A program made the translations under genes and the position numbers. A DNA stretch of 64,000 nt from Burkholderiales bacterium (GTDB taxonomy: Bacteria; Pseudomonadota; Gammaproteobacteria; Burkholderiales; SG8-39). Positions within the stretch are counted from its first letter, which is position 1. Each line of letters starts with the position of its first letter. The notes beneath the pieces were generated by a model. It ran no database searches. It was not told the origin of the DNA and saw nothing but the letters and a program-made list of their open reading frames with translations. This document shows, piece after piece, positions 4,796-53,095 of the stretch. The stretch lies in contig JADLAV010000061.1 in NCBI GenBank assembly GCA_020848075.1, forward strand, positions 124,001-188,000. Direction: 5' to 3'.

Positions 4796-7700
4796 TCAAT
4801 GCGTCGTCGGCGCGAGCTGCCGCAGGACCTCGCGCACCCCTTGTGCGCGCTCCCTGAGCGTGGCCGAGGCGCGCTCGATGCGCAGCCTGCTCGGCCCTTG
4901 CAGGCGCCAGCCGCGGTTCTTCTGGATGAGCTCGATGATTCGCGCCGGATCGACGGCGGGGTGCGCCTCGAAGTGGATCACCACGGCCTCGGCGGTCGCG
5001 TCCACCCGCGCGATGCCGAGCGCGCGCGAAAGGATGCGCAGCCGGTGGCTTTCGAGGAGCGCCTGGGCCTGCTCCGGCAGCGGGCCGAAGCGGTCCACCA
5101 GCTCCTCGTGCATCGCGGTGAGCGCTTCGTCGGTCTCGCAGTTCGCCAGGCGCTTGTAGACCACGAGCCGCTCGTGCACGTCGGAGCAGTAACCGGAGGG
5201 CAGCAGCACCGGCCGGTGCAGGTTGATCTCGGTCGCGACCCCGAGCGGCTGCGAGAGGTCGGGCTCGCGCCCCGCCTTCAGCGCGCGCACTGCGTGGTTG
5301 AGCATGTCGGCGTAGAGGTTGAAGCCGACTTCCTGGATCTCGCCGCTCTGCGACTCGCCGAGCACCTCGCCCGCGCCGCGGATCTCGAGGTCGTGCATGG
5401 CGAGATAGAAGCCGGAGCCGAGCTCCTCCATCGTCTGGATCGCCTCGAGCCGTTTCTTCGCGGCGGCCGTGAGCGCCTCCTCGGGCGGAGTCAGCAGGTA
5501 GGCGTAGGCCTGGTGGTGCGAGCGCCCGACGCGGCCGCGCAGCTGGTGCAGCTGCGCGAGCCCGAGCTTGTCGGCGCGGTTGATCACGATCGTGTTCGCG
5601 GTCGGGATGTCGATGCCGGTCTCGATGATCGTCGAGCACACCAGGAGGTTCGTCCGCTGCTGCAGGAACTCGCGCATCACGCGCTCGAGCTCGCGCTCGC
5701 GCATCTGGCCGTGCGCCACCGCGATCCGCGCCTCAGGGAGGAGCTCGCCGAGCTTCTCGCGCATCGCCTCGATCGACTCGACCTCGTTGTGCAGGAAGTA
5801 GACCTGGCCGCCGCGCTTCAGCTCGCGCAGGCAGGCCTCGCGGACGAGGCCGGGCGAGTAGTTGGCGACGAAGGTCTTGATGGCGAGGCGCTTCGCGGGC
5901 GCCGTGGCGATCACCGAGAGATCGCGCAGGCCCTCGAGCGACATGGCGAGCGTGCGCGGGATCGGCGTCGCGGTCAGGGTGAGCACGTCCACCTCCGCGC
6001 GCAGGCGCTTCAGCGCCTCCTTTTGGCGCACGCCGAAGCGGTGCTCCTCGTCCACGATCGCAAGCCCCAGCCGCGCGAACTTCACGTCGCGCGAGAGGAG
6101 CTTGTGGGTGCCGACGACGATGTCGATGCGGCCCGCGGCGAGCGCGTCGAGCGTCGCCCGCTGCTCCTTGCCGGTCCGGAACCGCGAGAGCTCGGCGAGC
6201 CTCACCGGCCAGTCGGCGAACCGGTCGCCGAAGGTGTTGAAGTGCTGCTCGGCGAGCAGCGTCGTCGGCGTGAGGACGGCGACCTGGCGGCCGTCCGCCA
6301 CCGCGATGAACGCGGCGCGCAGCGCCACCTCGGTCTTGCCGAAGCCGACGTCGCCGCACACGAGCCGGTCCATCGGCTTCGCCGAGCGCATATCCTCGGC
6401 CACCGCGGCGATGGTGGCGGCCTGGTCGGGCGTCTCCTCGAAGCCGAAGCCCTCGGCGAAGGCGTCGAGGTCGTGCGCCGCCACCGCGAATGCGTGTCCT
6501 TCGCGCGCGGCGCGCTTCGCGTAGAGCGCGAGGAGTTCGGCGGCGGTGTCGCGCACCTGCTCGGCCGCCTTGCGCTTCGCCTTCTCCCACTGGTCGCCGC
6601 CGAGGCGGTGCAGCGGCGCGGCCTCGGCCGGACCGCCGGAGTAGCGCCCGATGACGTGCAGCTGCGCGACCGGGACGTAGAGCTTGTCGGCGCCCGCGTA
6701 CTCGAGCTGCAGGAACTCGGTCTCGCCCTCGCCGAGGTCGAGGCTCACGAGGCCGCGGTAGCGGCCGATGCCGTGGCTCTCGTGCACCACCGGGTCGCCG
6801 ATCGCGAGCTCCGAGAGGTCGCGCAGCATGCCGTCGACCGAGCTCCGCTTCTCGCGCTCGCGCCCGATGCGGGCACGCGCGGTGCCGGCGTAGAGCTCCG
6901 ATTCGGTGACGATCGCGATGCCCTCCGCCGGCAGAGCGAAGCCGCTCGCAAGGGGTCCGACGCCGAGCATCAGGCGCTCGGACGAGGCGGCGAACTGCCC
7001 GAAGTTCGCGCACGGCGCCGGATGCAACCCGTACTCGGCGAAGTACTCGGTCATGGTCTCGCGGCGCCCGGGCGAGTCCGCGAGCACCAGCGTGCGCGCG
7101 GGGCTCGCGGCGAGATAGGCCTTCAGCGAGTGGAGGGGATCGGCGGCGCGGCGCTCGACGGCGATGCCGGGCAGCGCGTGGGCGGCGAAGGCGTCGGCGT
7201 CGTGCCGTGCGAGGGGGACGGCGTGCAGGTCCACCCGCGCGAAGTCGCGGAGCGCGACGAACAGCTCCTCGGCGCGCAGGAAGAGATCCGACGGTGGCAG
7301 CAGCGGCCGGTCGCGATCGCCGCGCAGCAACTGGTACCGCGAGCCGGTGTCGCGCCAGAATTGGTCGATCGCCCCGTGCACGTCATGGTGCAGGGCGATC
7401 GTCGTGCCGGTGGGCAGGTAGTCGAAGAGGGTGCCCGTCTTCTCGAAAAAGAGCGGCAGGTAGTACTCGACGCCGGGCGGCGGCACGCCGTTCGAGACAT
7501 CCTTGTACACCGGGCTCTTGGTGACGTCGCCCTCGAACGCGTCGCGGAAGCGCTGCCGAAAGCGGTTGCGGCCGGCCTCGTCCATCGGGAACTCGCGCGC
7601 CGGCAGCAGGCGGATCTCCTGCGCCTGGTAGATCGTGCGCTGGGTGTCGACGTCGAAGGTGCGGATCGACTCGATCTCGTCGTCGGCGAGGTCGATGCGA

Positions 7701-40122: not shown

Positions 40123-40329
40123 ACGCCGCGCCTGCGGCCGCGGTGAGGACGCGCCGCCGATGAAGCGGTAGCGAACGCGCGTCGCCTCCGCGGCGTGGCC
40201 GGAGGCGCCTTGACAGTTCGCCGGGCCAAAGCGCAGTATTGCCGCCAGAACCGCGGGTAGCGCATCGGCGGCGGTCGCCGCCGGGGCAGATATGTCGTGA
40301 GTGACGCCGAGCGAGGGAGGAGCCGAGTC

Positions 40330-41547
40330 ATGATCAGTCGATCCCGTTTCGTGGTTGCCGTGATGGTTCTCGCGCTGGTCGCATCGCCGATGACGGCCGG
40401 ACCGGCGATGGCGCAAGGGAAGACCGTGAAGGTCGGCTTCCTGTCCGGGTTCACCAGCGTGTGCGCACCGCTGACGGAGTCGAACCTGAAAGGCGTCCGC
40501 CTGGGCGTCGAGCAGATCAACGCGGCCGGCGGGCTCCTCGGCGACAAGATCGATCTCCTCGTCCGCGATACCAAGACGCAGCCCGACGAGGGCGTCCTGC
40601 AGATGCGGCGGCTGCTGCTCGAGGACAAGGTGCCGTTCGTGCTCGGACCGTGCTCGAGCGCTGTCAACATCGCCATCTCGCAGCTCTCCAAGCAGTTCAA
40701 GCGCATCCAGATCTCGTCGGTCGCGAACACGCACCGTGCGACCGAGGAGCTCGGCCACAAGTACTACTTCCAGGTCGTCCCGAACACCCGCATGGAAGCG
40801 CGCGCGGTCGCCCAGATCGCCGCCAAGCAGCCATGGAAGCGGTGGGTCACCATCGGCCTCGACTACGAGTGGGGCCACGTGGGGATCGAGGCGTTCCTGC
40901 AGAAGATGAAGGAGCTGCGGCCCGACATCGAGGTGGTCAAGCAGTACTGGCCGAAGATCGGCGAGACCGACTACAACACGTTCATCACCGGCATCCAGGC
41001 CGATAAGCCTGACGCCGTCATCGCGTTCCTCTTCGGCCCGGCGCTCATCAACTTCACCCGCCAGGCGCGGGGACTCGGCCTCTACGACCAGGTGAAGAGC
41101 GTGGTGAGCCTCTACTCGGTGGACATGCTGAAGCCGATGGGCGCCGAGACGCCGCTGAATCAGCTGGGCTGGGCGCGGGCGCCGTTCTTCGCCCTCGAGG
41201 GCCCCGCGTTCGAGACCTTCTTCAAGCAGTACCGCGAGCGCTACAACAACGACATCCCCGACGACTGGGCCGTCATGGGCTACGACGCGGTCATGCTCCT
41301 CCGCGCCGGCGTCGAGAAGTCGAAATCGCTCGATCCCGACAAGGTTGCCGACGCGCTGAGCGGCATCACGCTGCAGAGCCTCCGCGGACCGATCACCGTG
41401 CGGGCGGCCGACCACATGGCCTCGGTGCCGGTCTTCGTCGGCTGGACCGCCGAATCGAAGGAGTATCCGTTCCGGGTCTTCCGTGACACCGTACGCGTGC
41501 CGGGCGACCAGCTCTGGCTCAGCGAGTCGGAGCTGAAGAAGCGCTAG
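40330..41547 (+). CDS. livK: Branched-chain amino acid-type ABC transporter substrate-binding protein
   Basis: Signal peptide; KVGFLSGFTSVCAPLTESNLKGVRLGVEQINAAGGLLGDKIDLLVRDTKTQPDEG. Confidence 0.9.
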   Translation: MISRSRFVVAVMVLALVASPMTAGPAMAQGKTVKVGFLSGFTSVCAPLTESNLKGVRLGVEQINAAGGLLGDKIDLLVRDTKTQPDEGVLQMRRLLLEDKVPFVLGPCSSAVNIAISQLSKQFKRIQISSVANTHRATEELGHKYYFQVVPNTRMEARAVAQIAAKQPWKRWVTIGLDYEWGHVGIEAFLQKMKELRPDIEVVKQYWPKIGETDYNTFITGIQADKPDAVIAFLFGPALINFTRQARGLGLYDQVKSVVSLYSVDMLKPMGAETPLNQLGWARAPFFALEGPAFETFFKQYRERYNNDIPDDWAVMGYDAVMLLRAGVEKSKSLDPDKVADALSGITLQSLRGPITVRAADHMASVPVFVGWTAESKEYPFRVFRDTVRVPGDQLWLSESELKKR

Positions 41548-41583
41548 ACACGCGGCGCGCCGCCCGCTCGCAAGAAAGGCGCC

Positions 41584-42465
41584 GTGTCGATCGAGACGCT
41601 GGCGATCCAGGCCGCTGTCGGCCTGGTGAACGCCATGCTGCTCTTCCTGGTGGCGTCGGGCCTGTCGCTGATCTTCGGCGTGAGCCGGATCATCAATTTC
41701 GCCCACGGCTCCTTCTACATGCTGGGCGCATACGCCGCCTTCACGCTCGCGCAGTTCGCGCCCACGCACCCGGGCTGGCTGCTGCTCGCCGTCGCGCTGT
41801 CCGCCCTGGCGGTCGCCGTCGTCGGCGCGCTGGTGGAGACCTCGTTCCTGCGCCGCGTGTACGCGAGTGACGAGCTCTTTCAGCTGCTCGCCACCTTCGC
41901 CGTCGTGCTGGCCGTGAGCGACCTGGTCAAGATCGTGTGGGGATCGGCGAACAAGAGCTTGCCGCTGCCGGCGACCTACCGGCAGGCGCTGCCCATCCTC
42001 GGGCAGCCGTTCCCCGTGTACTACTTCCTGCTGCTCGTGCTCGGTGTCGTCGTCATGGCGGGGCTCTGGTGGCTCGTGTACCGCACGCGGTGGGGCGTCC
42101 AGGTGCGCGCGTGCACCGACGATCGCGACATGGCGAACGCCATCGGCATCAACCAGAAGTGGCTCACCACCAGCGTGTTCCTGCTCGGCACCGGCCTTGC
42201 CGGCCTGGGCGGTGTCTTCGCTGCGGTGATGGGCACGATCACGCCGGTCATGGACTCGGACATGCTGGTCGAGGCGTTCGTGGTCGTCGTGGTCGGCGGG
42301 CTCGGCAGCCTGCTCGGCTCGTTCGTGGCGGCGCTCATCGTGGGCGAGCTGAAGGCGATGGCGATCCTGGTCTTTCCCAGCGCCTCGATGGTCATCGTGT
42401 TCCTGCTGATGGCGGTGATCCTCATCGTGCGGCCGTGGGGTCTCTTCGGCGAGGCGGAGGAGTGA
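41584..42465 (+). CDS. livH: Branched-chain amino acid-type ABC permease
   Basis: LSLIFGVSRIINFAHGSFYMLGAYAAF; RACTDDRDMANAIGINQ. Confidence 0.93.
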   Translation: MSIETLAIQAAVGLVNAMLLFLVASGLSLIFGVSRIINFAHGSFYMLGAYAAFTLAQFAPTHPGWLLLAVALSALAVAVVGALVETSFLRRVYASDELFQLLATFAVVLAVSDLVKIVWGSANKSLPLPATYRQALPILGQPFPVYYFLLLVLGVVVMAGLWWLVYRTRWGVQVRACTDDRDMANAIGINQKWLTTSVFLLGTGLAGLGGVFAAVMGTITPVMDSDMLVEAFVVVVVGGLGSLLGSFVAALIVGELKAMAILVFPSASMVIVFLLMAVILIVRPWGLFGEAEE

Positions 42466-43412
42466 CGGCGGCCGTGCCCGGAGTCCCGGCCGTGCGGTCC
42501 TGGGTGCGGCTGCCCGTCGCCGCGGCGTTTTTCGCGGCACTCGGGGGGGTACTCCTCCTGCCCGAGGTCCTGTCCGTCTATCAGATCTACCTCGCCCTCG
42601 AGGTGCTGATCTTCGGGCTCGCCGCCACGAGCCTCAACCTTCTCGTCGGCTACGCCGGCATGGTGAGCTTCGGCCACGCCGCGTACTTCGGCGCCGCGAG
42701 CTACTGCGCGGCGCTCGCCATGAAGTACGCCGGCGTGTCGATGTGGACGGCGTTGCTCGTGGCCCCGCTCGGGTCCACCGTGCTGGCCTTCGTCTACGGC
42801 ATCTTCTGCGTGCGCCTCTCGCGGATCTACTTCGCGATGCTCACGCTCGCCTTCGCGCAGCTCACCTATACCGTGGCGTTCCAATGGTACGGTGTCACGG
42901 GCGGCGATACCGGCCTCCTGGGCGTGATGCCTGCCGACGCCATCGCCGAGCCGCAGACGTACTTCCGCTTCACCGCGCTCGTCGTGGCCGCATGCATCGC
43001 GGTGCTGTACGCCGTCGTCCGGTCCCCGTTCGGCCTCACGCTGCGGTCGATTCAGCAGAACCGCGTGCGTGTCGAGCTGCTCGGCGTCAATCCGTACCTC
43101 TACCAGCTGGGCGCCTTCGTCATCGCCGGCTTCTTCGCCGGCGTCGCCGGCGCCCTCTACGCGTTCGAGAAGGGCGCGGTCTTCCCCGACTACCTGTCGC
43201 TCGGGCACTCGCTCAAATTCATCCTGATGACGCTGCTCGGCGGGTTCACGGTATTCCTCGGGCCGCTCTTGGGTGCGCTGGTGTTCGAGCTGCTCAACAG
43301 CGTGCTGACGAACTACACCCAGTACTGGCAGCTGCCGCTCGCCGTGTGCCTCGCCGCGGTGATCCTGTTCGCGCCGAGCGGGCTGTCGGGCCTCTTCCTC
43401 CGCAAGCGCTGA
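42462..43412 (+). CDS. livM: Branched-chain amino acid-type ABC permease (GTG start)
   Basis: GLAATSLNLLVGYAGMVSFGHAAYFGAASY; SIQQNRVRVELLGVNPYLYQLGAFVIAG. Confidence 0.93.
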   Translation: MTAAVPGVPAVRSWVRLPVAAAFFAALGGVLLLPEVLSVYQIYLALEVLIFGLAATSLNLLVGYAGMVSFGHAAYFGAASYCAALAMKYAGVSMWTALLVAPLGSTVLAFVYGIFCVRLSRIYFAMLTLAFAQLTYTVAFQWYGVTGGDTGLLGVMPADAIAEPQTYFRFTALVVAACIAVLYAVVRSPFGLTLRSIQQNRVRVELLGVNPYLYQLGAFVIAGFFAGVAGALYAFEKGAVFPDYLSLGHSLKFILMTLLGGFTVFLGPLLGALVFELLNSVLTNYTQYWQLPLAVCLAAVILFAPSGLSGLFLRKR

Positions 43413-44182
43413 TGCCGCCCATTCTCGAGGCGGCCGACGTCGTGAAGCACTTCGGCGGACTGGTCGCCGTCGACTGCGTTTCGTTCGCGGTCGAGGCGGG
43501 CGAGCGCGTCGCGATCATCGGGCCGAACGGTGCGGGCAAGAGCACGCTGTTCAACGTGCTGAACGGCCGCCTGCACGCCGACGCGGGGCGCGTCGTCCTG
43601 GAGGGCGTCGACGTGACGGGCATGCGCGCCTTCGGCGTCGTGCGGCGCGGCGTCGGCCGCACGATGCAGATCACCAGCGTCTTCGGCCGCCTCACCGTGT
43701 TCGAGAACGTGCACATGGCCGTCCTGGCCCGCACGCGGCGTACGCGGAAGCTGCTGCGGCCGGCGAGCGCCTTCGGGCTCGAGGAGACGGACGCGCTGCT
43801 CGAGCGCATCGGGCTCGCCGACCGTGCCGGTCAGGTGTGCGGCACGCTGTCGCACGGGGATCAGAAGCGCGTCGAGGTCGCCATGATGCTCGCGCTGCGC
43901 CCGCGGCTGCTCATGCTCGACGAGCCCGCGGCCGGGTCGCCAGCAACGGAGCGGCAGCGTCTCGCCGAGCTGATCCTGGGCCTGGTCCGGGCCGAGGGTC
44001 TCACGCTGCTCGTCGTCGAGCACGATCTGAACCTCGTCTTCACCGTTGCGGCGCGGATCCTCGTCCTGCACCAGGGCCGGCTCATCGCGGACGGTACGCC
44101 GGACGCCGTGCGCGAGAACGTCGAGGTCCAGCGCATCTACCTGGGCGAGCCCGCGCCGGGCCGCGGCGGCGTGAGGGCGTGA
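43412..44182 (+). CDS. livG: Branched-chain amino acid-type ABC ATP-binding protein
   Basis: IIGPNGAGKSTLFNVLNG, LSHGDQKRVEVAMMLALRPRLLMLDEP. Confidence 0.93.
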   Translation: MPPILEAADVVKHFGGLVAVDCVSFAVEAGERVAIIGPNGAGKSTLFNVLNGRLHADAGRVVLEGVDVTGMRAFGVVRRGVGRTMQITSVFGRLTVFENVHMAVLARTRRTRKLLRPASAFGLEETDALLERIGLADRAGQVCGTLSHGDQKRVEVAMMLALRPRLLMLDEPAAGSPATERQRLAELILGLVRAEGLTLLVVEHDLNLVFTVAARILVLHQGRLIADGTPDAVRENVEVQRIYLGEPAPGRGGVRA

Positions 44183-44883
44183 TGCTCGACGTCAGCGACC
44201 TCCACGTCTACTACGGCCTGAGCCAGGCGCTCTTCGGCGTGAGTCTCCGCGCCGAGCGGGGCGAGCTGATCGCGCTCGTCGGGCGGAACGGCGCGGGCAA
44301 GAGCACGACGCTCAAGGCGATCGTCGGGCTCTGCCGGCCGCGGCGCGGTCGCGTGGTCTTCGGCGGACGCGACGTGACGGGCTGGCCGCCGTACCGCATC
44401 GCGCGCGCCGGGATCGGCTACGTGCCCGAGGACCGGCGGGTGTTCCGGAGTCTCACGGTCCAGGAGAACCTCGAGGCGGCGCGGCTGCCCGAGCGCGAGC
44501 GGGCGGACGGCTGGACGATGGCCGGCGTGTTCGAGCTGTTTCCGGACCTGGCGCGGCTCCGCGGGCACCTGGCCGGGCGGCTGTCCGGCGGCCAGCAGCA
44601 GATGCTGACGATCGGGCGGGCGCTCATGACGAATCCGGATCTTCTGCTCCTCGACGAGCCGTCCGAGGGCCTGGCACCGCTCCTCGTCCAGCTGCTCGCC
44701 GAGCGCGTTGCGCTCATGAAAGAGCGGGGGTTGACGATCGTGCTGTCCGAGCAGAACGTGGAGTTCGTCCGTGAGCTCGCCGACCGCGTCTACACCCTCG
44801 AGAAGGGCGAAGTCCGCTACGAGGGCCGCATGCAGGACTTCCTGGCGAGCGAGGAAATCGCGCGCGCGTATCTCGGCGTGTGA
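44182..44883 (+). CDS. livF: Branched-chain amino acid-type ABC ATP-binding protein
   Basis: LVGRNGAGKSTTLKAIVGL, LSGGQQQMLTIGRALMTNPDLLLLDEPSEGLAP. Confidence 0.94.
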   Translation: MLDVSDLHVYYGLSQALFGVSLRAERGELIALVGRNGAGKSTTLKAIVGLCRPRRGRVVFGGRDVTGWPPYRIARAGIGYVPEDRRVFRSLTVQENLEAARLPERERADGWTMAGVFELFPDLARLRGHLAGRLSGGQQQMLTIGRALMTNPDLLLLDEPSEGLAPLLVQLLAERVALMKERGLTIVLSEQNVEFVRELADRVYTLEKGEVRYEGRMQDFLASEEIARAYLGV

Positions 44884-45114: not shown

Positions 45115-45516
45115 ATGGAGAACAAGGCGCCGCAGCCCACCGAGGTCAAGCTGCACCAGAAGTCGCGCGTGATGGAGATCGCGTTCTCGGACGGCAGCCG
45201 CTTCGAGCTGAGCTACGAGCTTTTGCGGGTGTACTCGCCTTCGGCCGAGGTGCGCGGGCACGGGCCGGGGCGCGAGACGCTGCAGGTCGGCAAGCGCGAC
45301 GTGGAGATCCGCTCGGTCGAGCCGAGCGGGAACTACGCGATCCAGCCGGAGTTTTCCGACGGACACGACTCGGGCATCTATACCTGGGACTACCTCTATT
45401 GGCTGGGCAAGAACCGCGACAAGCTATGGCGGGATTACCTCGAGCGCCTCGAGCAGGCGGGAGCGAGCCGCGCGCCGGGTCCCGCGCCGTTCGAGGCGCG
45501 CCCCAAATCGAAGTAG
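45115..45516 (+). CDS. DUF971 (gamma-butyrobetaine hydroxylase-like N-terminal) domain protein
   Basis: PTEVKLHQKSRVMEIAFSDGSRFELSYELLRVYSPSAEVRGHGPG...YAIQPEFSDGHDSGIYTWDYLYWLG. Confidence 0.92.
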   Translation: MENKAPQPTEVKLHQKSRVMEIAFSDGSRFELSYELLRVYSPSAEVRGHGPGRETLQVGKRDVEIRSVEPSGNYAIQPEFSDGHDSGIYTWDYLYWLGKNRDKLWRDYLERLEQAGASRAPGPAPFEARPKSK

Positions 45517-45533
45517 CGGCGGCGTTCAAGGTC

Positions 45534-46913
45534 GTGCTGGTCAACGCCTACGAGCTCGGGCGGCAGCCGTTCGCGCTCGCGCAGCCCGCCGCGTGGCTCG
45601 AACGCGCAGGCTTCGCGGTGAGCTGCCTCGATCTTTCCCTGCAGAAGCTCGACGCCGAAGTGCTGCGGGAGGCGGGGCTGGTGGCGATCTACGTCGGCAT
45701 GCATACGGCCACGCGGATCGCCGTGGAGGCGTTGCCACGCGTCAGGCAGCTTGCGCCGAACGCGCACCTCTGCGTCTACGGCCTCTACGCCCCGATGAAC
45801 GCGACGCTGCTGCGTACGCTCGGCGTGGAGACCGTGCTCGGCGGAGAGGTGGAGCCCGCGCTCGTTGACCTCGCCCGGCGCCTGCGTAGCGGGGACAGCC
45901 CGGGGGGCCAGCGCGAGCCGATCGTCAGCCTCGAGCGCATCGCGTTCGAGGTGCCCGACCGCACCGCCTTGCCGAAGCTCGTGCGCTACGCCCATCTGGT
46001 GCTGACCGACGGATCGACGCGCGTCGCGGGATTTGCCGAAGGCAGCCGCGGCTGCAAGCACCTGTGCCGGCATTGCCCGATCGTGCCGGTGTACCAGGGA
46101 AAATTCCGCGTCGTTCCGGTCGAAACGGTGCTGGCGGACATCCGCCAGCAGGTGGCCGAAGGCGCCGCCCACATTTCGTTCGGCGATCCGGATTTCCTCA
46201 ACGGACCCAGGCACGGCCTGCGCCTTGCGCGCGCGCTGCACGATGCGTTTCCCGGCGTGACCTTCGATGCGACCATCAAGATCCAGCACCTGATCGAGCA
46301 TCGCGACCTTCTGACCGAGCTCCGCGCGAGCGGATGTCTCTTCGTGACGTCCGCGGTGGAAGCGGTGGACGACGAGATCCTGCGCCTTCTCGGCAAGAAC
46401 CACGGCAGCCGCGACTTCGACCGCGCCGTGGCGCTCACGCGTGCAGCCGGCATTGCGCTCGCGCCGACCTTCGTCGCCTTCACCCCGTGGACGACGCTCG
46501 AGGGCTACATCGCGCTGCTCGAGCGGCTCGTCGCGCTCCGGCTCGTGGAAAGCGTGCCGCCGGTGCAACTCGCCATCCGGCTGCTCGTGCCGGAGGGCTC
46601 GTGGCTGCTCAGGCTGCCCGGCTTTCGGGCGAGTCTGCAAGCCTTCGATCCTGCGCTCCTCGGCTATCCGTGGATCCATCGGGATCCCAGAGTGGATCGG
46701 CTACAGCAGCGCGTGCAGGCGAGGATCGTGGAGTGCGAGCGTGAAGGGCTGCCGCGGCGCGCTGCGTTCGCCGCGATCTGGCGCATGGCGCACGAGGCCG
46801 CCGCGCGCCCCGCGCCGGAACTTCCGGACGACGTCGGTGCACCCATCCCGCACCTTTCCGAGCCCTGGTACTGCTGCGCCGAACCGACCGCACAGCAGCT
46901 CGAGTCGTTCTGA
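45534..46913 (+). CDS. CCAEP-tail radical SAM protein with B12-binding-like N-terminus (GTG start proposed)
   Basis: CxxxCxxC in GSRGCKHLCRHCPIVP; ISFGDPDFLNGP; C-terminal tail SEPWYCCAEPTAQQLESF*. Confidence 0.85.
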   Translation: MLVNAYELGRQPFALAQPAAWLERAGFAVSCLDLSLQKLDAEVLREAGLVAIYVGMHTATRIAVEALPRVRQLAPNAHLCVYGLYAPMNATLLRTLGVETVLGGEVEPALVDLARRLRSGDSPGGQREPIVSLERIAFEVPDRTALPKLVRYAHLVLTDGSTRVAGFAEGSRGCKHLCRHCPIVPVYQGKFRVVPVETVLADIRQQVAEGAAHISFGDPDFLNGPRHGLRLARALHDAFPGVTFDATIKIQHLIEHRDLLTELRASGCLFVTSAVEAVDDEILRLLGKNHGSRDFDRAVALTRAAGIALAPTFVAFTPWTTLEGYIALLERLVALRLVESVPPVQLAIRLLVPEGSWLLRLPGFRASLQAFDPALLGYPWIHRDPRVDRLQQRVQARIVECEREGLPRRAAFAAIWRMAHEAAARPAPELPDDVGAPIPHLSEPWYCCAEPTAQQLESF

Positions 46914-46987
46914 GGCACGCTCGTGCAGACTGCCACCCGGCTCGCATTGGAGCGGCGCCGTGACGAATGGAAGGCAGAGCGCCGGGC

Positions 46988-48247
46988 ATGAAGCGTGTCC
47001 TGCTGCTTCTCCCCGCGAGCGGCTATCGCAACGACGACTTCCTCGCGGCGGCGCGGCGGCTCGGCGTCGAGATCGTCGCCGCGGCGAATTACTGCCGCCG
47101 GCTTGCGCCAGTCTGGGGTCTCGCGCCGATCATGGCGTTGCCTTTCGACCGGCCGCGGGCGGCGGTCGCCACGGTACTGTGCGAAATGACCGCTCTGCCG
47201 GACGCCGTGCTGGCGGTGGACGATTCGGGAGTCGAGCTCGCGGCGATGCTCTCCGAGCGCCTCGGTCTTCCGGGAAACCGCGTCGAGGCGGTGCGCCGGG
47301 TGCGCGACAAGCTCGCCTTCCGCCAGCTGCTGCAGGCGCGCGAATTCTCGCATCCCGCGTTCCAACATCTGTCATACGGCGAAGACGTCGGCGAGCTTCC
47401 GGCCGGGCTGAAGTTCCCGGTGGTCGTGAAGGCGCGGCGCCTGTCCGCCAGCCGGGGCGTCATCCGTGCGGACGACACGCGGGCGCTGCTGCGCGCCGTG
47501 CGCCGGGTGCGGGCGATCCAGTTACGCGCCGACCGCGACGCCGCGCAGCTCGGCATCGTCATCGAGGAGTTCATCCCTGGGCGCGAGTACGCGCTGGAGG
47601 GCAGCCTCCGCGGGGGCGAGCTGACCGTGCTCGCGCTCTTCGACAAGCCCGATCCACTGGACGGACCCTTCTTCGAGGAAACGCTGTACGTCACGCCGTC
47701 GCGGCTGCCGCGAGCGCCCCAGGACGAGATTCGTCAGGAAGTCGCACGCGCCTGCCGCGCCGCCGGACTGGTGAGCGGGCCGGTGCACGCCGAAGTACGG
47801 GTGAACGAGCAGGGCGTCTGGATCCTCGAGATCGCGGCACGCTCCATCGGCGGCCTGTGCGCCCGCGTGTTCGATCATCTGCTGGGAACGAGCCTGGAGG
47901 AGCGCATCCTGCGCCAAGCCGTGGGGGAAGCGCTGCCGGCGCCGACGCTGACAGGCGGAGCGGCGGCGGGCGTCATGATGATCCCGATTCCCCGGCGCGG
48001 CATCTACCGTGGGCTCGAAGGCCTCGAGGCCGCGCAGTCGGTTCCAGGGATCACCGGCCTCACCATGACGGTGGCGCGCGGGCAGCTCATCGCACCGCCT
48101 CCGGAGGGCGCGAGCTACCTCGGATTCATCTTCTGCCGCGCGGCGAGCCCCGCAGAAGCCGAGCGTGCGCTACGCGCCGCGCACGCCCGGCTGCGGATCG
48201 ACATCGTTTCCGAGCATCCGCTGTCGCCGGCGGCCGGAACGGCGTGA
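46988..48247 (+). CDS. ATP-grasp domain protein
   Basis: FPVVVKARRLSASRGVIRADD, IVIEEFIPGREYALEGSL, VHAEVRVNEQGVWILEIAARSIGG. Confidence 0.85.
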   Translation: MKRVLLLLPASGYRNDDFLAAARRLGVEIVAAANYCRRLAPVWGLAPIMALPFDRPRAAVATVLCEMTALPDAVLAVDDSGVELAAMLSERLGLPGNRVEAVRRVRDKLAFRQLLQAREFSHPAFQHLSYGEDVGELPAGLKFPVVVKARRLSASRGVIRADDTRALLRAVRRVRAIQLRADRDAAQLGIVIEEFIPGREYALEGSLRGGELTVLALFDKPDPLDGPFFEETLYVTPSRLPRAPQDEIRQEVARACRAAGLVSGPVHAEVRVNEQGVWILEIAARSIGGLCARVFDHLLGTSLEERILRQAVGEALPAPTLTGGAAAGVMMIPIPRRGIYRGLEGLEAAQSVPGITGLTMTVARGQLIAPPPEGASYLGFIFCRAASPAEAERALRAAHARLRIDIVSEHPLSPAAGTA

Positions 48248-48722: not shown

Positions 48723-49089
48723 GGGCACCTCCGCGAAGTGGATACGCATATGGTAATCCAGGACGCGTCGCCGAAACCCGCGTTGCCGTATCCCCTTTCG
48801 TGGAGTGCTGGCGACGGGGTCTCCCGTGTGCCGTCCCGGCAAGGCGGCCGCGGCGGAAATGCCCACGCACCCGTTCGCCTGCGTGCGATGCCGCGCCGCC
48901 CGGCGACCATCACGCATGCGCTCATGGCAATTGGCCGGCGCACGATGATTCTCGGTTGTTCTGCAATAATGGTCGCAACACCACCAGCTTGAATCCGCTC
49001 GCCGCAATCCCCAGATTACCGACGCGGGGTACGGCTTGCATTCGTCGGCGTACTCCCTTATCCAACCTCAGTTCAAACGGAGATCGATC

Positions 49090-49698
49090 ATGAGACTGTA
49101 TTTCTCGCCAGGCGCCTGCTCGCTCTCGGTGGACATCGTTCTGCGCGAGGCCGGACTGCCGTTCGACCTCGTCAAGGTCGACCTCAGAAGCAAGAAGCTC
49201 GCCGATGGCAGCGATTACCTGCAAGTGAACCCCAAGGGCTACGTGCCGGCGCTCGAGCTCGACGACGGTGAGCGCCTGACCGAAGTCCCTGCGGTCGTCC
49301 AGTATCTCGCCGACCAGAAACCCGAGACGGGTCTCGCGCCGAAGGCCGGAACGATGGAGCGCTACCGCCTCCAGGAGTGGCTCAATTTCCTGAGCACCGA
49401 GGTGCACAAGCAGTTCTCGCCGCTCTTCAATCCCGCCACCTCGGAGGACTGGAAGCAGGCCGTGCGCGGCAACCTCGCGCGCCGCTTCGACTGGCTCGCG
49501 CCGCAGCTCGCCGCGCGACCTCACCTGATGGGCGAGCGCTTCACCGTGGCGGATGCGTATCTGTTCACGCTGCTCAATTGGTGCAGTTTGACCGGCGTCG
49601 ACCTCGGCTGCTGGTCCGCGCTCAAGGAATACCACGCGCGTGTCGGCGCCCGGCCCAAGGTTCACGAAGCGCTTAAGGCCGAGGGTCTCGTGAAGTGA
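49090..49698 (+). CDS. gstA: Glutathione S-transferase
   Basis: MRLYFSPGACSLSVDIVLREAGLPFDLVKVDLRSKKLADGSDYLQVNPKGYVPALELDDG. Confidence 0.94.
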   Translation: MRLYFSPGACSLSVDIVLREAGLPFDLVKVDLRSKKLADGSDYLQVNPKGYVPALELDDGERLTEVPAVVQYLADQKPETGLAPKAGTMERYRLQEWLNFLSTEVHKQFSPLFNPATSEDWKQAVRGNLARRFDWLAPQLAARPHLMGERFTVADAYLFTLLNWCSLTGVDLGCWSALKEYHARVGARPKVHEALKAEGLVK

Positions 49699-49991: not shown

Positions 49992-51272
49992 TTACAGGTA
50001 ACCGAGCGCGCGCGGCAGATAGAGCGCGATTTCCGGGATGAAAGTGATCGCGAGCAGGCCCGTCAGCATCGCGGCGACGAACCATGCCACCCACGGCACG
50101 GTCGACTCGATCGGCACGTCGGCGATGCGGCTCGTCACCAGCAGGTTCACCGCCATCGGCGGGGTGAACTGGCCGATCGCGAGATTCATGGTGATGATGA
50201 TGCCGAACCACACCAGGTCCCACTGATAGTGGACGGCAATCGGGACCAGGAGCGGGAGGAAGATGAAGTAGATCGAGATCGCATCGAGGAACATGCCGGC
50301 GATGAGCAGCAGAACCGTGATGCCGAGCAGGATCATGGTCTCGGAGCTGCCGGAACCGACCAGGAACCGCGCCATGCGGTCGAAGGTGCCGAGCGTCGAG
50401 CTGGCGTAGGCGAACACGCTGGCGAGCGCGACGATCAGCAGGATCACGGCGGAGATTTCCGCCGCCTCGACCAGGACCTCGTAGATGTCCTCGAGCGAGA
50501 GCGAGCGGTAGACGAGAACGCCCACGGCGAAGCCGTAGAAGGCGGCGACGACGGCGGCTTCGGTCGGCGTGAAGAGGCCCGAGCGCATGCCGCCGAGGAT
50601 GATGACCGGCGCCGCCAGTCCCCAGAGCGCCGCGCGCAGGCTGCGCCAGAACGGCGGGCGCGCTTCGCCCGAGGCGAGCCCGAAGCCGTGGCGCTTGCAC
50701 AGCCAGACCGCGATGACGATCAGCGTCACACCGGCCAGGATGCCGGGAACCAGGCCGCCCGCAAAGAGCGCGTGGACCGTGGCCTGTGGTACCAGCAGGC
50801 TGTAGATGATGAGCGCGATCGACGGCGGAATGAGAATAGCGGTCGAGCCGCCGGCGGCGATCAGGCTCGCGGCGAACGCGCGCGGATAGCCGTCCTTGAC
50901 CATCGCCGGGATCATGATCGTGCCGACGGCGGCGGCGTCGGCCGGCCCCGAGCCGGAGATGCCGCCGAGCACCATGCCGACCAGCACCGCAGTGATCGCG
51001 AGCCCGCCATGCTTGCGGCCGACCATGCTCGCCGCGAACTGCACCATCGAGCGCGCGACGCCGGCGCGCTCGAACACGAGGCCGGCGAGCACGAACATCG
51101 GAATCGCCAGCAGCGGATATTTCGCGATGCCGGTGTAGACGTTGGTCGGTACCGACATGATGCCCAGGTTGGCGGTCGCGATTACCGCAGTGCCGGCAAG
51201 CCCCAGCGCGATGCCGAGCGGCACCCCGGCCAGCATCAGCGCCAGGAACATGCCGAACAGCACCCAGTCCAT
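49992..51272 (-). CDS. dctM: TRAP transporter large permease
   Basis: GMVLGGISGSGPADAAAVGTIMIPAMVKDGYPRAFAASLIAAGGSTAILIPPSIALIIY. Confidence 0.93.
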   Translation of the reverse strand: MDWVLFGMFLALMLAGVPLGIALGLAGTAVIATANLGIMSVPTNVYTGIAKYPLLAIPMFVLAGLVFERAGVARSMVQFAASMVGRKHGGLAITAVLVGMVLGGISGSGPADAAAVGTIMIPAMVKDGYPRAFAASLIAAGGSTAILIPPSIALIIYSLLVPQATVHALFAGGLVPGILAGVTLIVIAVWLCKRHGFGLASGEARPPFWRSLRAALWGLAAPVIILGGMRSGLFTPTEAAVVAAFYGFAVGVLVYRSLSLEDIYEVLVEAAEISAVILLIVALASVFAYASSTLGTFDRMARFLVGSGSSETMILLGITVLLLIAGMFLDAISIYFIFLPLLVPIAVHYQWDLVWFGIIITMNLAIGQFTPPMAVNLLVTSRIADVPIESTVPWVAWFVAAMLTGLLAITFIPEIALYLPRALGYL

Positions 51273-51278
51273 CGCGCT

Positions 51279-51791
51279 CTATTCCCGGCCGCGCAGGTGG
51301 CGCACCGCGAGCTGGGCCACGCGCCCGACGATCAGCAGAGAGAGGAGCGGCAGCCAGACGGTGTAGATCCATTGCGGGATGCCGAGGGCCGGTGAGGAGA
51401 CTTCGTAACGGAAGTCGTCCCACGCCATGCGCCCGCCATACCAGACGAGCAGGGCGAACATGACCGCCGTGGCGAGGATCGCCAGCAGGCCGGCCGTGCG
51501 CTGGATGTTGCGCGGCAGGCGCTCGACCAGGATGACCACGCTGATGTGACGCTTGGTGAAGAACGCGCTCGAAGTGCCGACCAGGGTGAGGAACACGAGC
51601 AGCCACACCGAAACCTCTTCGGTGTAGGCGAACGACTCGTCGGTCAGATAGCGCACCACGACGTTCGCCATGGTGATCACGCACAGCGCGACCATCGCCA
51701 GCGCCATCAGCGCCCGCTCGATGCGCAGCAGGGTGGGGGCCTCTGGTTTCTCGGGTTTCCGATCAGCGACGGCGTCGGACGGACGGGACAT
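51279..51791 (-). CDS. dctQ: TRAP transporter small permease
   Basis: LTDESFAYTEEVSVWLLVFLTLVGTSSAFFTKRHISV; adjacent to dctM. Confidence 0.92.
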   Translation of the reverse strand: MSRPSDAVADRKPEKPEAPTLLRIERALMALAMVALCVITMANVVVRYLTDESFAYTEEVSVWLLVFLTLVGTSSAFFTKRHISVVILVERLPRNIQRTAGLLAILATAVMFALLVWYGGRMAWDDFRYEVSSPALGIPQWIYTVWLPLLSLLIVGRVAQLAVRHLRGRE

Positions 51792-51887
51792 CGAGAGTCA
51801 CGCGGCATGCAGGGCGAAGAGGGACGGGCAAGATCGCCGCGGCTTGCCCTCCACGCGTCCGCCCTGCGCAAGCGTTCTGTCTACGCC

Positions 51888-52910
51888 CTATCGCTTGCTG
51901 ATCGAGGTTTCCGCCTTCTTCACCAGACCGGGACCGATGGTTTTGGTCCAGTTGACGTACACCTTGCGGGTGGCGTCCCGGAACTGCTTGCGCTCGGCAT
52001 CGGTGATGCGCGTGACGGTGACGCCCTTGGCCTCGATTTCCTTGATCGCGGCGTCATCCGGCGGCTCGATGCCTTTGCGCGCATCCTTGACGTTCTCCGC
52101 GCCGGCCTGGATCGCCGCCTGGCGCACGATCTCGCGGTCGGCCGGCGTCCAGCTCGCCCACACCTCCCTGTTGGCGACGAAAATCAGCGGATCGGCGGTG
52201 TACTCCCACAGCGTCAGGTACTTCTGGTTGAGCGTCCACATCTTGGCGTTGACGAACACCGACAGCGGATTCTCCTGGCCGTCGACCGCGCCGCTGGAGA
52301 GCGCGGGCTGCGCGTCGGCGAAGCTCATCTGCGTCGGGTTGGCGCCGAGCGCGCTGAAGGTGTCGATGAAGATGGGCGAGCCGACCACGCGGAACTTCAT
52401 GCCTTTCATGTCGGCGGGCGTGCGGATGACCTTCTTCGAGTTGCTGAGCTCGCGAAAGCCGTTCTCGCCCCAGGCGAGCGGCACCACGCCCTGGCTTTCG
52501 AGGATCTTGAAGATGTCCCTGCCGACTTCGCCGTGGGTGAGCGCGTCGATCGCCTTGTAGTCGGGCATGAGGAACGGCAGCGAGAAGAGATTGAGCTGCT
52601 TGACCTGCGGCGACCAGTTGATGGTGGAGCCGATCGCGAGATCGATCACGCCCTGGCGGATCGCCGTGAACTCGCGCGTCTGATCGCCGCCGACGAGGCT
52701 CGTGCCGGGATACATCTTGATGTTGATGCGTCCGTTCGTCTTTTCCCTGACCAGCTTCGCCCACAGCTCGCCGGCCCGGCCCCAGGGGTAGGACGAGGGC
52801 AGCACGGTGGACAGGCGGTATTCCGATCGGTATTCCTCGGCCTGCGCGGAACTCGCAAGACACAGGCTCGCGCCGAGCAGGGCCGCGGCGCACAGAAGCA
52901 CGCGTTTCAT
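51888..52910 (-). CDS. dctP: TRAP transporter substrate-binding protein
   Basis: Signal peptide; EYRLSTVLPSSYPWGRAGELWAKLVREKTNGRINIKMYPGTSLVGGDQTREFTAIRQGVIDLAIGST. Confidence 0.93.
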   Translation of the reverse strand: MKRVLLCAAALLGASLCLASSAQAEEYRSEYRLSTVLPSSYPWGRAGELWAKLVREKTNGRINIKMYPGTSLVGGDQTREFTAIRQGVIDLAIGSTINWSPQVKQLNLFSLPFLMPDYKAIDALTHGEVGRDIFKILESQGVVPLAWGENGFRELSNSKKVIRTPADMKGMKFRVVGSPIFIDTFSALGANPTQMSFADAQPALSSGAVDGQENPLSVFVNAKMWTLNQKYLTLWEYTADPLIFVANREVWASWTPADREIVRQAAIQAGAENVKDARKGIEPPDDAAIKEIEAKGVTVTRITDAERKQFRDATRKVYVNWTKTIGPGLVKKAETSISKR

Positions 52911-53095
52911 GAGACTCTCCCGAAGAGTTGACCCGGTGTTGGCGCGGCGTGGAGCGATGGAAGTGTAATCGCTCGATTTCGCTCGCGTCAAATCATCCGT
53001 CGTTGCCGAGACGCTTCGACTGGACTGTGCGGACTAGGCTGCGCCGAGCTCACCCGGCGCTGCGTGCGCAGCACTGCGCATCGTGGAGGAGGGAA

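What the first reader, a model, noticed from the sequence alone, without database searches (positions are those of the whole stretch)
45115..48247. DUF971 - CCAEP-tail radical SAM - ATP-grasp cassette: possible uncharacterised modification pathway
Sequence: three co-directional genes (gaps about 17 and 74 bp). The radical SAM protein has CxxxCxxC, a B12-binding-like N-terminal region and a C-terminal WYCCAEP tail. I recall an NCBI family called CUAEP/CCAEP-tail radical SAM (seleno)protein (from memory, needs verification), in which the second Cys can be selenocysteine. An adjacent ATP-grasp ligase suggests a two-step radical/ligation pathway on an unknown substrate, and DUF971 may support Fe-S supply. 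No precursor peptide was obvious to me.
Basis: partly seen in the sequence, partly recalled or inferred. Interest (0 to 1): 0.75.

Follow-up and report, generated by a model that had tools for sequence, protein, structure and literature searches.

The report
Radical enzyme paired with peptide ligase
The window holds a two-gene pathway of unknown product in which a radical enzyme related to the one that makes the arsenic antibiotic arsinothricin is inherited together with an amino-acid ligase, and other bacteria keep the ligase but swap in a different radical enzyme that also ends in a cysteine-pair tail.

Summary
The three genes are real and at the stated coordinates. The radical SAM protein belongs to NCBIfam NF040546 (613 bits, cut-off 500), and its closest relative is the arsinothricin enzyme ArsL. 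The tail SEPWYCCAEP is in the invariant or nearly invariant columns of 42 homologs; Thermomicrobium roseum has an in-frame TGA at the second Cys. The ATP-grasp is an L-amino-acid-ligase type. In 300 genomes of the window's order, the 25 with the radical SAM gene are exactly the 25 with this ATP-grasp. More widely, gammaproteobacteria lacking CUAEP keep the ATP-grasp with a different radical SAM enzyme (AmmeMemo-like, tail KKCAASCCGDEG). That enzyme occurs in 41 of 47 such genomes, in 0 of 43 CUAEP genomes and in 0 of 70 with neither gene, which looks like non-orthologous displacement. No arsenic genes flank the CUAEP loci; iron-sulfur genes (yggX, hesB-like, NifU) recur beside the ATP-grasp. 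DUF971 is a housekeeping neighbour without cysteines, not core. Best guess: the radical enzyme builds a non-standard amino acid by ArsL-like 3-amino-3-carboxypropyl chemistry on a substrate held by the Cys/Sec tail, and the ligase joins it to a second amino acid. The pairing is well supported; chemistry and product are inferred. No description was found in the held papers.

The parts
45534..46913 (+). CUAEP/CCAEP-tail radical SAM protein (459 aa from GTG), ArsL sister family
   Evidence: NF040546 613 bits vs cut-off 500; ArsL model 257 bits; AlphaFold pLDDT 92.8
46053..46076 (+). CxxxCxxC radical SAM [4Fe-4S] motif (residues 174-181, CKHLCRHC)
   Evidence: all three Cys invariant in 42 homologs
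46857..46886 (+). C-terminal tail SEPWYCCAEP with vicinal Cys447-Cys448 (second position is Sec/TGA in Thermomicrobium roseum)
   Evidence: C447 and C448 invariant in 42 homologs; T. roseum TGA
46988..48247 (+). ATP-grasp L-amino-acid-ligase-type enzyme (419 aa), obligate partner of the radical SAM gene in the window's order
   Evidence: PF13535, LAL_C2; PDB 3VOT, E=5.5e-36; identical set of 25/300 genomes
45115..45516 (+). DUF971 / GBBH-like_N protein (133 aa, no Cys): conserved neighbour in many betaproteobacterial loci, probably accessory or hitch-hiking
   Evidence: PF06155 107 bits; 0 Cys; present in 29/30 genomes; linked copies not one clade

Best explanation
The core is a two-enzyme pathway made of the CCAEP-tail radical SAM protein and the ATP-grasp ligase. 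Shown: the two are inherited as a unit in the window's order. Shown: in other gammaproteobacteria the same ligase clade occurs without CUAEP but with a different radical SAM enzyme that also carries a vicinal-Cys tail. Inferred: like its sister ArsL, the radical SAM enzyme cleaves SAM to a 3-amino-3-carboxypropyl radical and transfers it to a thiophilic substrate held by the tail Cys-Cys (or Cys-Sec) pair, giving an unusual alpha-amino acid. Inferred: the ATP-grasp then activates a carboxylate with ATP and joins this amino acid to another one, giving a small dipeptide-like metabolite. The lack of ars, resistance or export genes and the recurrent yggX, hesB-like and NifU neighbours suggest a role in iron or iron-sulfur metabolism rather than an arsenical antibiotic. 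Step probabilities: functional pairing about 0.9; ligase forms a small peptide or amide about 0.65; aminocarboxypropyl chemistry about 0.4; iron/Fe-S role about 0.4.
For: Family and ArsL kinship; ArsL and CUAEP are separated from other radical SAM rows by a 100/100 branch. Obligate pairing: same 25 of 300 genomes (Fisher 5e-37, no correction for phylogeny). Co-evolution of distances: Mantel r 0.76 over 51 loci, 0 of 999 permutations as high; 0.95 in 36 beta loci versus 0.75 for CUAEP-DUF971. Adjacent within 3 kb in 36 of 49 well-flanked loci, in several orientations. In 30 genomes where it is not directly downstream, the ortholog is present in 27, a set that includes a few loci where it lies close by on the other strand. 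Displacement: AmmeMemo-like CC-tail radical SAM in 41/47 ligase+ CUAEP- genomes, 0/43 CUAEP+ genomes, 0/70 with neither (exclusivity p=1e-11). Ligase type. Independent hint for the aminocarboxypropyl group: the genome's second ligase paralog overlaps a cystathionine-gamma-synthase-like/NifU fusion gene, an enzyme class that attaches the same four-carbon amino-acid unit. ArsL clusters of four distant genomes carry their own ATP-grasp ligase. ArsL chemistry: PMC8552651.
Against: The protein falls well under the ArsL cut-off and has a different tail, so the ArsL reaction is not shown. The ArsL-linked ATP-grasps are a separate clade with E-x-N-x-R where this family has E-x-A-x-R, so the two pairings may be independent. 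The displacing radical SAM is from another subfamily not known to do aminocarboxypropyl chemistry. Four of 23 CUAEP+ genomes at class level have no ligase found. Co-occurrence tests ignore phylogeny and MAG gaps. Fe-S neighbours may be positional, since yggX sits beside mutY in many gammas.
Confidence: 0.4

Rival explanations
1. The pair makes or installs something for iron-sulfur proteins: a cofactor, an iron(II) ligand or a modification of an Fe-S carrier. The tail Cys pair binds iron or a cluster fragment rather than a metalloid, and the radical chemistry is not ArsL-like.
For: hesB/IscA-like paralog beside the ATP-grasp in 23/27 and 17/20 loci and yggX in 23/27 and 15/20. NifU domain beside it in L231/L140 and fused to the partner enzyme of the genome's own paralog. 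yggX-DUF971-CUAEP-ligase order in relatives of the window.
Against: The window itself lacks yggX and hesB beside the pair. yggX is next to mutY in many gammas, so part of the linkage may be positional. DUF971 has no Cys.
Confidence: 0.3
2. It is an arsenical pathway: CUAEP is a functional ArsL that makes hydroxyarsinothricin-like amino acids, and the ATP-grasp turns them into arseno-peptides.
For: ArsL is the nearest family. Both tails carry a vicinal Cys pair. ArsL clusters also hold an ATP-grasp.
Against: No arsR, arsN1, ArsL-type MFS or CobW homolog in about 135 CUAEP or ligase loci; only the one true ArsL locus has the cluster's ArsM and MFS. ArsL score under cut-off, RCCLKC tail absent. 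Operons look chromosomal and housekeeping-like.
Confidence: 0.12
3. A conventional radical SAM reaction (5'-deoxyadenosyl radical, H-atom abstraction) on an amino acid or peptide, with the tail Cys pair as redox relay or auxiliary cluster ligand; the ATP-grasp then ligates the product.
For: Structural neighbour AprD4 uses standard 5'-dAdo chemistry (chemistry from general knowledge). The replacing enzyme is close to glycyl-radical activases.
Against: Closest characterised relative by sequence is ArsL, with non-canonical SAM cleavage.
Confidence: 0.2
4. Peptide maturation (RiPP) or chance neighbours: the genes act on a ribosomal peptide, or the three genes have no common function.
For: Radical SAM plus ATP-grasp combinations occur in RiPP pathways (general knowledge).
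Against: No conserved short ORF beside the genes. Exact co-occurrence and displacement speak strongly against chance.
Confidence: 0.04

Closest known systems
CUAEP/CCAEP-tail radical SAM (seleno)protein, NCBIfam NF040546
   Same: Full-length match above cut-off, CxxxCxxC, tail CCAEP; T. roseum relative with TGA at the second Cys.
   Different: Nothing excludes membership. The family has a name but no function, and neither the ATP-grasp partnership nor the displacement was found in the held papers.
ArsL, arsinothricin biosynthesis radical SAM protein, NCBIfam NF040542 (RCCLKC tail)
   Same: Sister family; shared invariant residues; CxxxCxxC; vicinal Cys tail; an ATP-grasp gene in the cluster.
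   Different: 257 bits versus cut-off 450; tail differs; no arsM, MFS, arsR or arsN1 nearby; ligase from another clade.
L-amino acid ligase BL00235 (PDB 3VOT), PF13535 + LAL_C2
   Same: Domain order and the GPFFEE...Y..P and E-x-x-A-R signatures align over 381 residues.
   Different: Distant homolog (128 bits); substrates unknown; partner is a radical SAM enzyme.
AmmeMemoRadiSam system radical SAM enzyme, TIGR04337
   Same: The enzyme that replaces CUAEP as the ligase's partner scores 232 bits (cut-off 220).
   Different: The match stops at model position 285 of 349. The replacing subfamily ends KKCAASCCGDEG.LLKKYE, absent in canonical members.
Phosphonoalamide-type pathways (PMC11867202) and dapdiamide/bacilysin ligases
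   Same: An unusual amino acid is built first, then ATP-grasp ligases make di- or tripeptides.
   Different: No radical SAM enzyme; antibiotic context; of that paper only the title, abstract start and term counts were seen here.

Membership tests
NF040546 rSAM_CUAEP | Score above the curated cut-off (500 bits) | tested here: met
   613 bits, residues 1-457 to model 2-467
NF040546 rSAM_CUAEP | C-terminal C[CU]AEP tail | tested here: met
   WYCCAEP; invariant in 42 homologs; Sec form in T. roseum
NF040542 ArsL | Score above the curated cut-off (450 bits) | tested here: not met
   256.7 bits
NF040542 ArsL | RCCLKC tail | tested here: not met
   tail is CCAEP
NF040542 ArsL | arsM / transporter neighbours (arsQML) | tested here: not met
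   none of the cluster's genes near CUAEP loci beyond weak general methyltransferase matches
NF040542 ArsL | Transfers 3-amino-3-carboxypropyl from SAM to As(III) | not testable with these tools
   needs enzyme assay
L-amino acid ligase (PF13535 + LAL_C2) | ATP-grasp_4 and LAL_C2 domains above cut-off | tested here: met
   97 and 63 bits (cut-offs 27 and 29.4)
L-amino acid ligase (PF13535 + LAL_C2) | Forms a peptide bond between amino acids | not testable with these tools
   needs enzyme assay
B12-dependent radical SAM | B12-binding domain and DxHxxG motif | tested here: not met
   no B12-binding Pfam hit; no DxHxxG; types that bind B12 without the motif are not excluded
RiPP pathway | Conserved precursor peptide gene nearby | tested here: not met
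   no family of 20-70 aa ORFs in 6 or more loci outside known genes
AmmeMemoRadiSam system | The window's radical SAM matches TIGR04337 | tested here: not met
   not among the 12 families hit by the window protein

The most novel reading that the evidence does not exclude
A widespread, non-arsenic metabolic pathway of proteobacteria in which a ligase of one clade is served by either of two radical SAM enzymes from different families. Both have converged on a cysteine-pair tail and make the same unusual amino acid, and the resulting peptide is a new intracellular ligand or cofactor in iron/iron-sulfur metabolism.
Probability: 0.25. Interest if true: 0.87.

Novelty: new variant of a known kind. 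Interest (0 to 1): 0.64.

Why it matters
It gives a named but functionless selenoprotein-type family a tight genetic partner, a characterised sister enzyme (ArsL) and a natural replacement enzyme. Together these make its chemistry directly testable by assay and by complementation. If the ArsL-like reaction holds, carbon-heteroatom bond formation by non-canonical SAM cleavage would reach beyond arsenic antibiotics into ordinary metabolism of environmental proteobacteria, sulfur and iron oxidisers among them. It also points to undescribed arsinothricin peptides in ArsL clusters that carry their own ligase.

Tried and rejected
DUF971 as a core part: rejected, because it is found in almost all genomes tested, carries no Cys, its linked copies are not one clade and its distances track CUAEP less well. 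Arsenic pathway: no ars genes nearby. Precursor peptide: none. Cobalamin dependence: no domain or motif. Viral carriage: no relative in viral contigs. Same origin of CUAEP- and ArsL-linked ligases: not supported, separate clades with long branches. Sec insertion hairpin after the T. roseum TGA: a hairpin folds but not better than shuffles (z -0.67), and Sec machinery of that strain was not checked. One outgroup row (L017) in the radical SAM tree was translated in a wrong frame, so that tree is used only for the branch separating the other outgroups from ArsL+CUAEP. Literature on CUAEP/CCAEP/RCCLKC by name: none held. The AlphaFold tool returned no coordinates, so the distance of the tail to the cluster could not be measured.

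Full report
WHAT IS THERE. The radical SAM protein is a full member of NCBIfam NF040546, 'CUAEP/CCAEP-tail radical SAM (seleno)protein' (613 bits, cut-off 500). The next family is ArsL, NF040542 (257 bits, cut-off 450). The ATP-grasp protein carries PF13535 and the L-amino-acid-ligase C-terminal domain, and its best solved relative is L-amino acid ligase BL00235, PDB 3VOT, E = 5.5e-36.

THE TAIL. In 42 aligned homologs the three cluster cysteines and Cys447-Cys448 are invariant, and the rest of SEPWYCCAEP is invariant or nearly so. The Thermomicrobium roseum relative is annotated as ending at ...LTESWFC, but its DNA continues TGA-GCG-GAG-CCG, that is Sec-Ala-Glu-Pro in frame, so the selenocysteine form is present in sequence. 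I did not check the Sec machinery of that strain, and the hairpin after the TGA is not better than shuffled sequence.

KINSHIP WITH ArsL. T. roseum CUAEP scores 315 bits with the ArsL model, and Alicyclobacillus ArsL scores 364 bits with the CUAEP model; every other radical SAM family is under 80 bits for those two proteins. In a tree, one 100/100 branch separates ArsL plus CUAEP from seven other radical SAM proteins (one outgroup row, L017, was mistranslated and should be ignored). ArsL tails end RCCLKC. [quoted passage not shown] The AlphaFold model (pLDDT 92.8) resembles AprD4, TsrM and OxsB. The N-terminal domain has a B12-binding-like fold but no B12 domain hit and no DxHxxG.

THE LIGASE IS AN OBLIGATE PARTNER IN THE WINDOW'S ORDER. 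Of 300 genomes of the order, 25 hold CUAEP over the cut-off and 25 hold the ATP-grasp ortholog, and they are the same 25 (Fisher 5e-37, not corrected for phylogeny). In 80 named loci from other species (mostly Beta- and Gammaproteobacteria MAGs, with Thiobacillus, Sulfuriferula, Sideroxydans and Sulfuricaulis), the ligase lies within 3 kb in 36 of 49 loci with enough flank, in several orders and orientations. In 30 genomes where it is not directly downstream, 27 carry it somewhere; this set includes a few, such as L091, L092 and L140, where it lies close by on the other strand. Protein distances of the two correlate (Mantel r 0.76 over 51 loci, 0 of 999 permutations; 0.95 in 36 beta loci versus 0.75 for CUAEP-DUF971).

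DISPLACEMENT. In the wider class sample (369 genomes) the picture changes. CUAEP is in 23 genomes and the ligase clade in 66, 19 of them shared (p = 3e-12). The 47 ligase-positive, CUAEP-negative genomes mostly carry the ligase in a hesB-like / ligase / yggX neighbourhood (20 loci examined). In 8 of those 20 loci a different radical SAM gene lies close to the ligase, and in 0 of 30 comparison loci. It scores 232 bits as AmmeMemoRadiSam radical SAM enzyme TIGR04337 (cut-off 220), but the match stops at model position 285 of 349. Its own C-terminus reads KKCAASCCGDEG.LLKKYE, a vicinal-Cys tail that canonical AmmeMemo paralogs do not have (four paralogs read). Genome-wide, orthologs of this enzyme (E at or below 1e-119) occur in 41 of the 47 ligase+ CUAEP- genomes, in none of 23 CUAEP+ genomes of the class and in none of 10 with neither gene. 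A second sample gave none of 60 further genomes with neither gene and none of 20 CUAEP+ genomes of the order. Within the 66 ligase-positive genomes the two radical SAM genes never co-occur (p = 1e-11). Six ligase-positive genomes show neither radical SAM, two of them under 80% complete. The simplest reading is that the ligase needs one CC-tail radical SAM partner, and two different families fill the post.

SURROUNDINGS. Genes of the ArsL clusters (ArsM, ArsN1, MFS, CobW, ArsR, ArsI) are absent from the CUAEP and ligase loci, apart from weak general methyltransferase matches. The exception is the one true ArsL locus in the order (L069), which has ArsM, MFS and its own ATP-grasp, 51% identical to the ATP-grasp of the Alicyclobacillus ars cluster. 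So ArsL clusters of four distant genomes also pair the radical SAM enzyme with an ATP-grasp, although those ligases form a separate clade and differ in the metal-binding motif. Around the CUAEP-type ligase the recurrent neighbours are a hesB/IscA-like gene, yggX and sometimes a NifU domain. The window's genome has a second, 50%-identical ligase on another contig, overlapping by 4 bp a gene that fuses a cystathionine-gamma-synthase-like PLP enzyme to a NifU domain. From general knowledge, such PLP enzymes attach the same four-carbon amino-acid unit (3-amino-3-carboxypropyl) to sulfur. That fits the idea that this ligase clade uses amino acids built on that unit, though it is a single case.

DUF971. 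It is conserved upstream in many beta loci, sometimes with ubiE between. It is, however, present in 29 of 30 genomes tested with or without CUAEP, its linked copies are not one clade, and the window copy has no cysteine. Five of the CUAEP genomes tested, the window's included, carry a second copy. I treat it as accessory or positional.

MECHANISM. Shown by comparison: a two-gene unit, an exchangeable radical SAM partner, a conserved Cys/Sec-pair tail, ligase fold and family, and no arsenic context. Inferred: the tail pair holds a thiophilic substrate; the radical step builds an unusual amino acid, probably by aminocarboxypropyl transfer as in ArsL; the ligase joins it to a second amino acid. 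The role is probably in iron/Fe-S or sulfur metabolism, since resistance, export and regulator genes are missing and Fe-S genes recur. The substrate and product are unknown.

LIMITS. Many genomes are MAGs; the genome search scores only the first few candidates per genome; Fisher tests ignore kinship; no coordinates of the structure model were available; no experiment was possible.

Noticed in passing
L154:2433-3665, L155:2480-3703, L156:7569-8774, L069 about 5213-6424: Arsinothricin (ArsL) clusters of Alicyclobacillus, Priestia, Pantoea and a member of the window's order all carry an ATP-grasp ligase of one clade, not part of the described arsQML cluster, suggesting arsinothricin peptides.
   Followed up: partly
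L291, L294, L295, L297, L300, L305, L306, L308 (near the ATP-grasp gene); L329-L344: An AmmeMemo-like radical SAM subfamily with tail KKC...CCG.EG..LKKYE, found in the samples only in ATP-grasp genomes and never with CUAEP; next to yggX in most loci.
   Followed up: yes
L232:6483-9730 (own genome, contig C65): A cystathionine-gamma-synthase-like/NifU fusion gene overlapping by 4 bp a second ATP-grasp paralog.
   Followed up: partly
L153:7935-9400 (Thermomicrobium roseum plasmid): CUAEP gene annotated as ending at an in-frame TGA that probably encodes Sec (WFC-U-AEP); next to a PLP aminotransferase and an MFS gene.
   Followed up: partly
L143:12597-13484 and other Thiobacillus loci: A fructosamine-kinase family gene follows the ATP-grasp in Thiobacillus-type loci.
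   Followed up: no
window 40297-44883: A branched-chain-amino-acid/urea-type ABC transporter cluster lies just upstream of the cassette.
   Followed up: no
window 49992-52991 (- strand): Frames that look like a TRAP-type transporter set lie downstream, after a glutathione-S-transferase-like frame at 49036-49698; not checked against families.
   Followed up: no
L077 and L137 (one MAG, MERQ01): One betaproteobacterial MAG carries two CUAEP loci, both with DUF971 and ATP-grasp.
   Followed up: no
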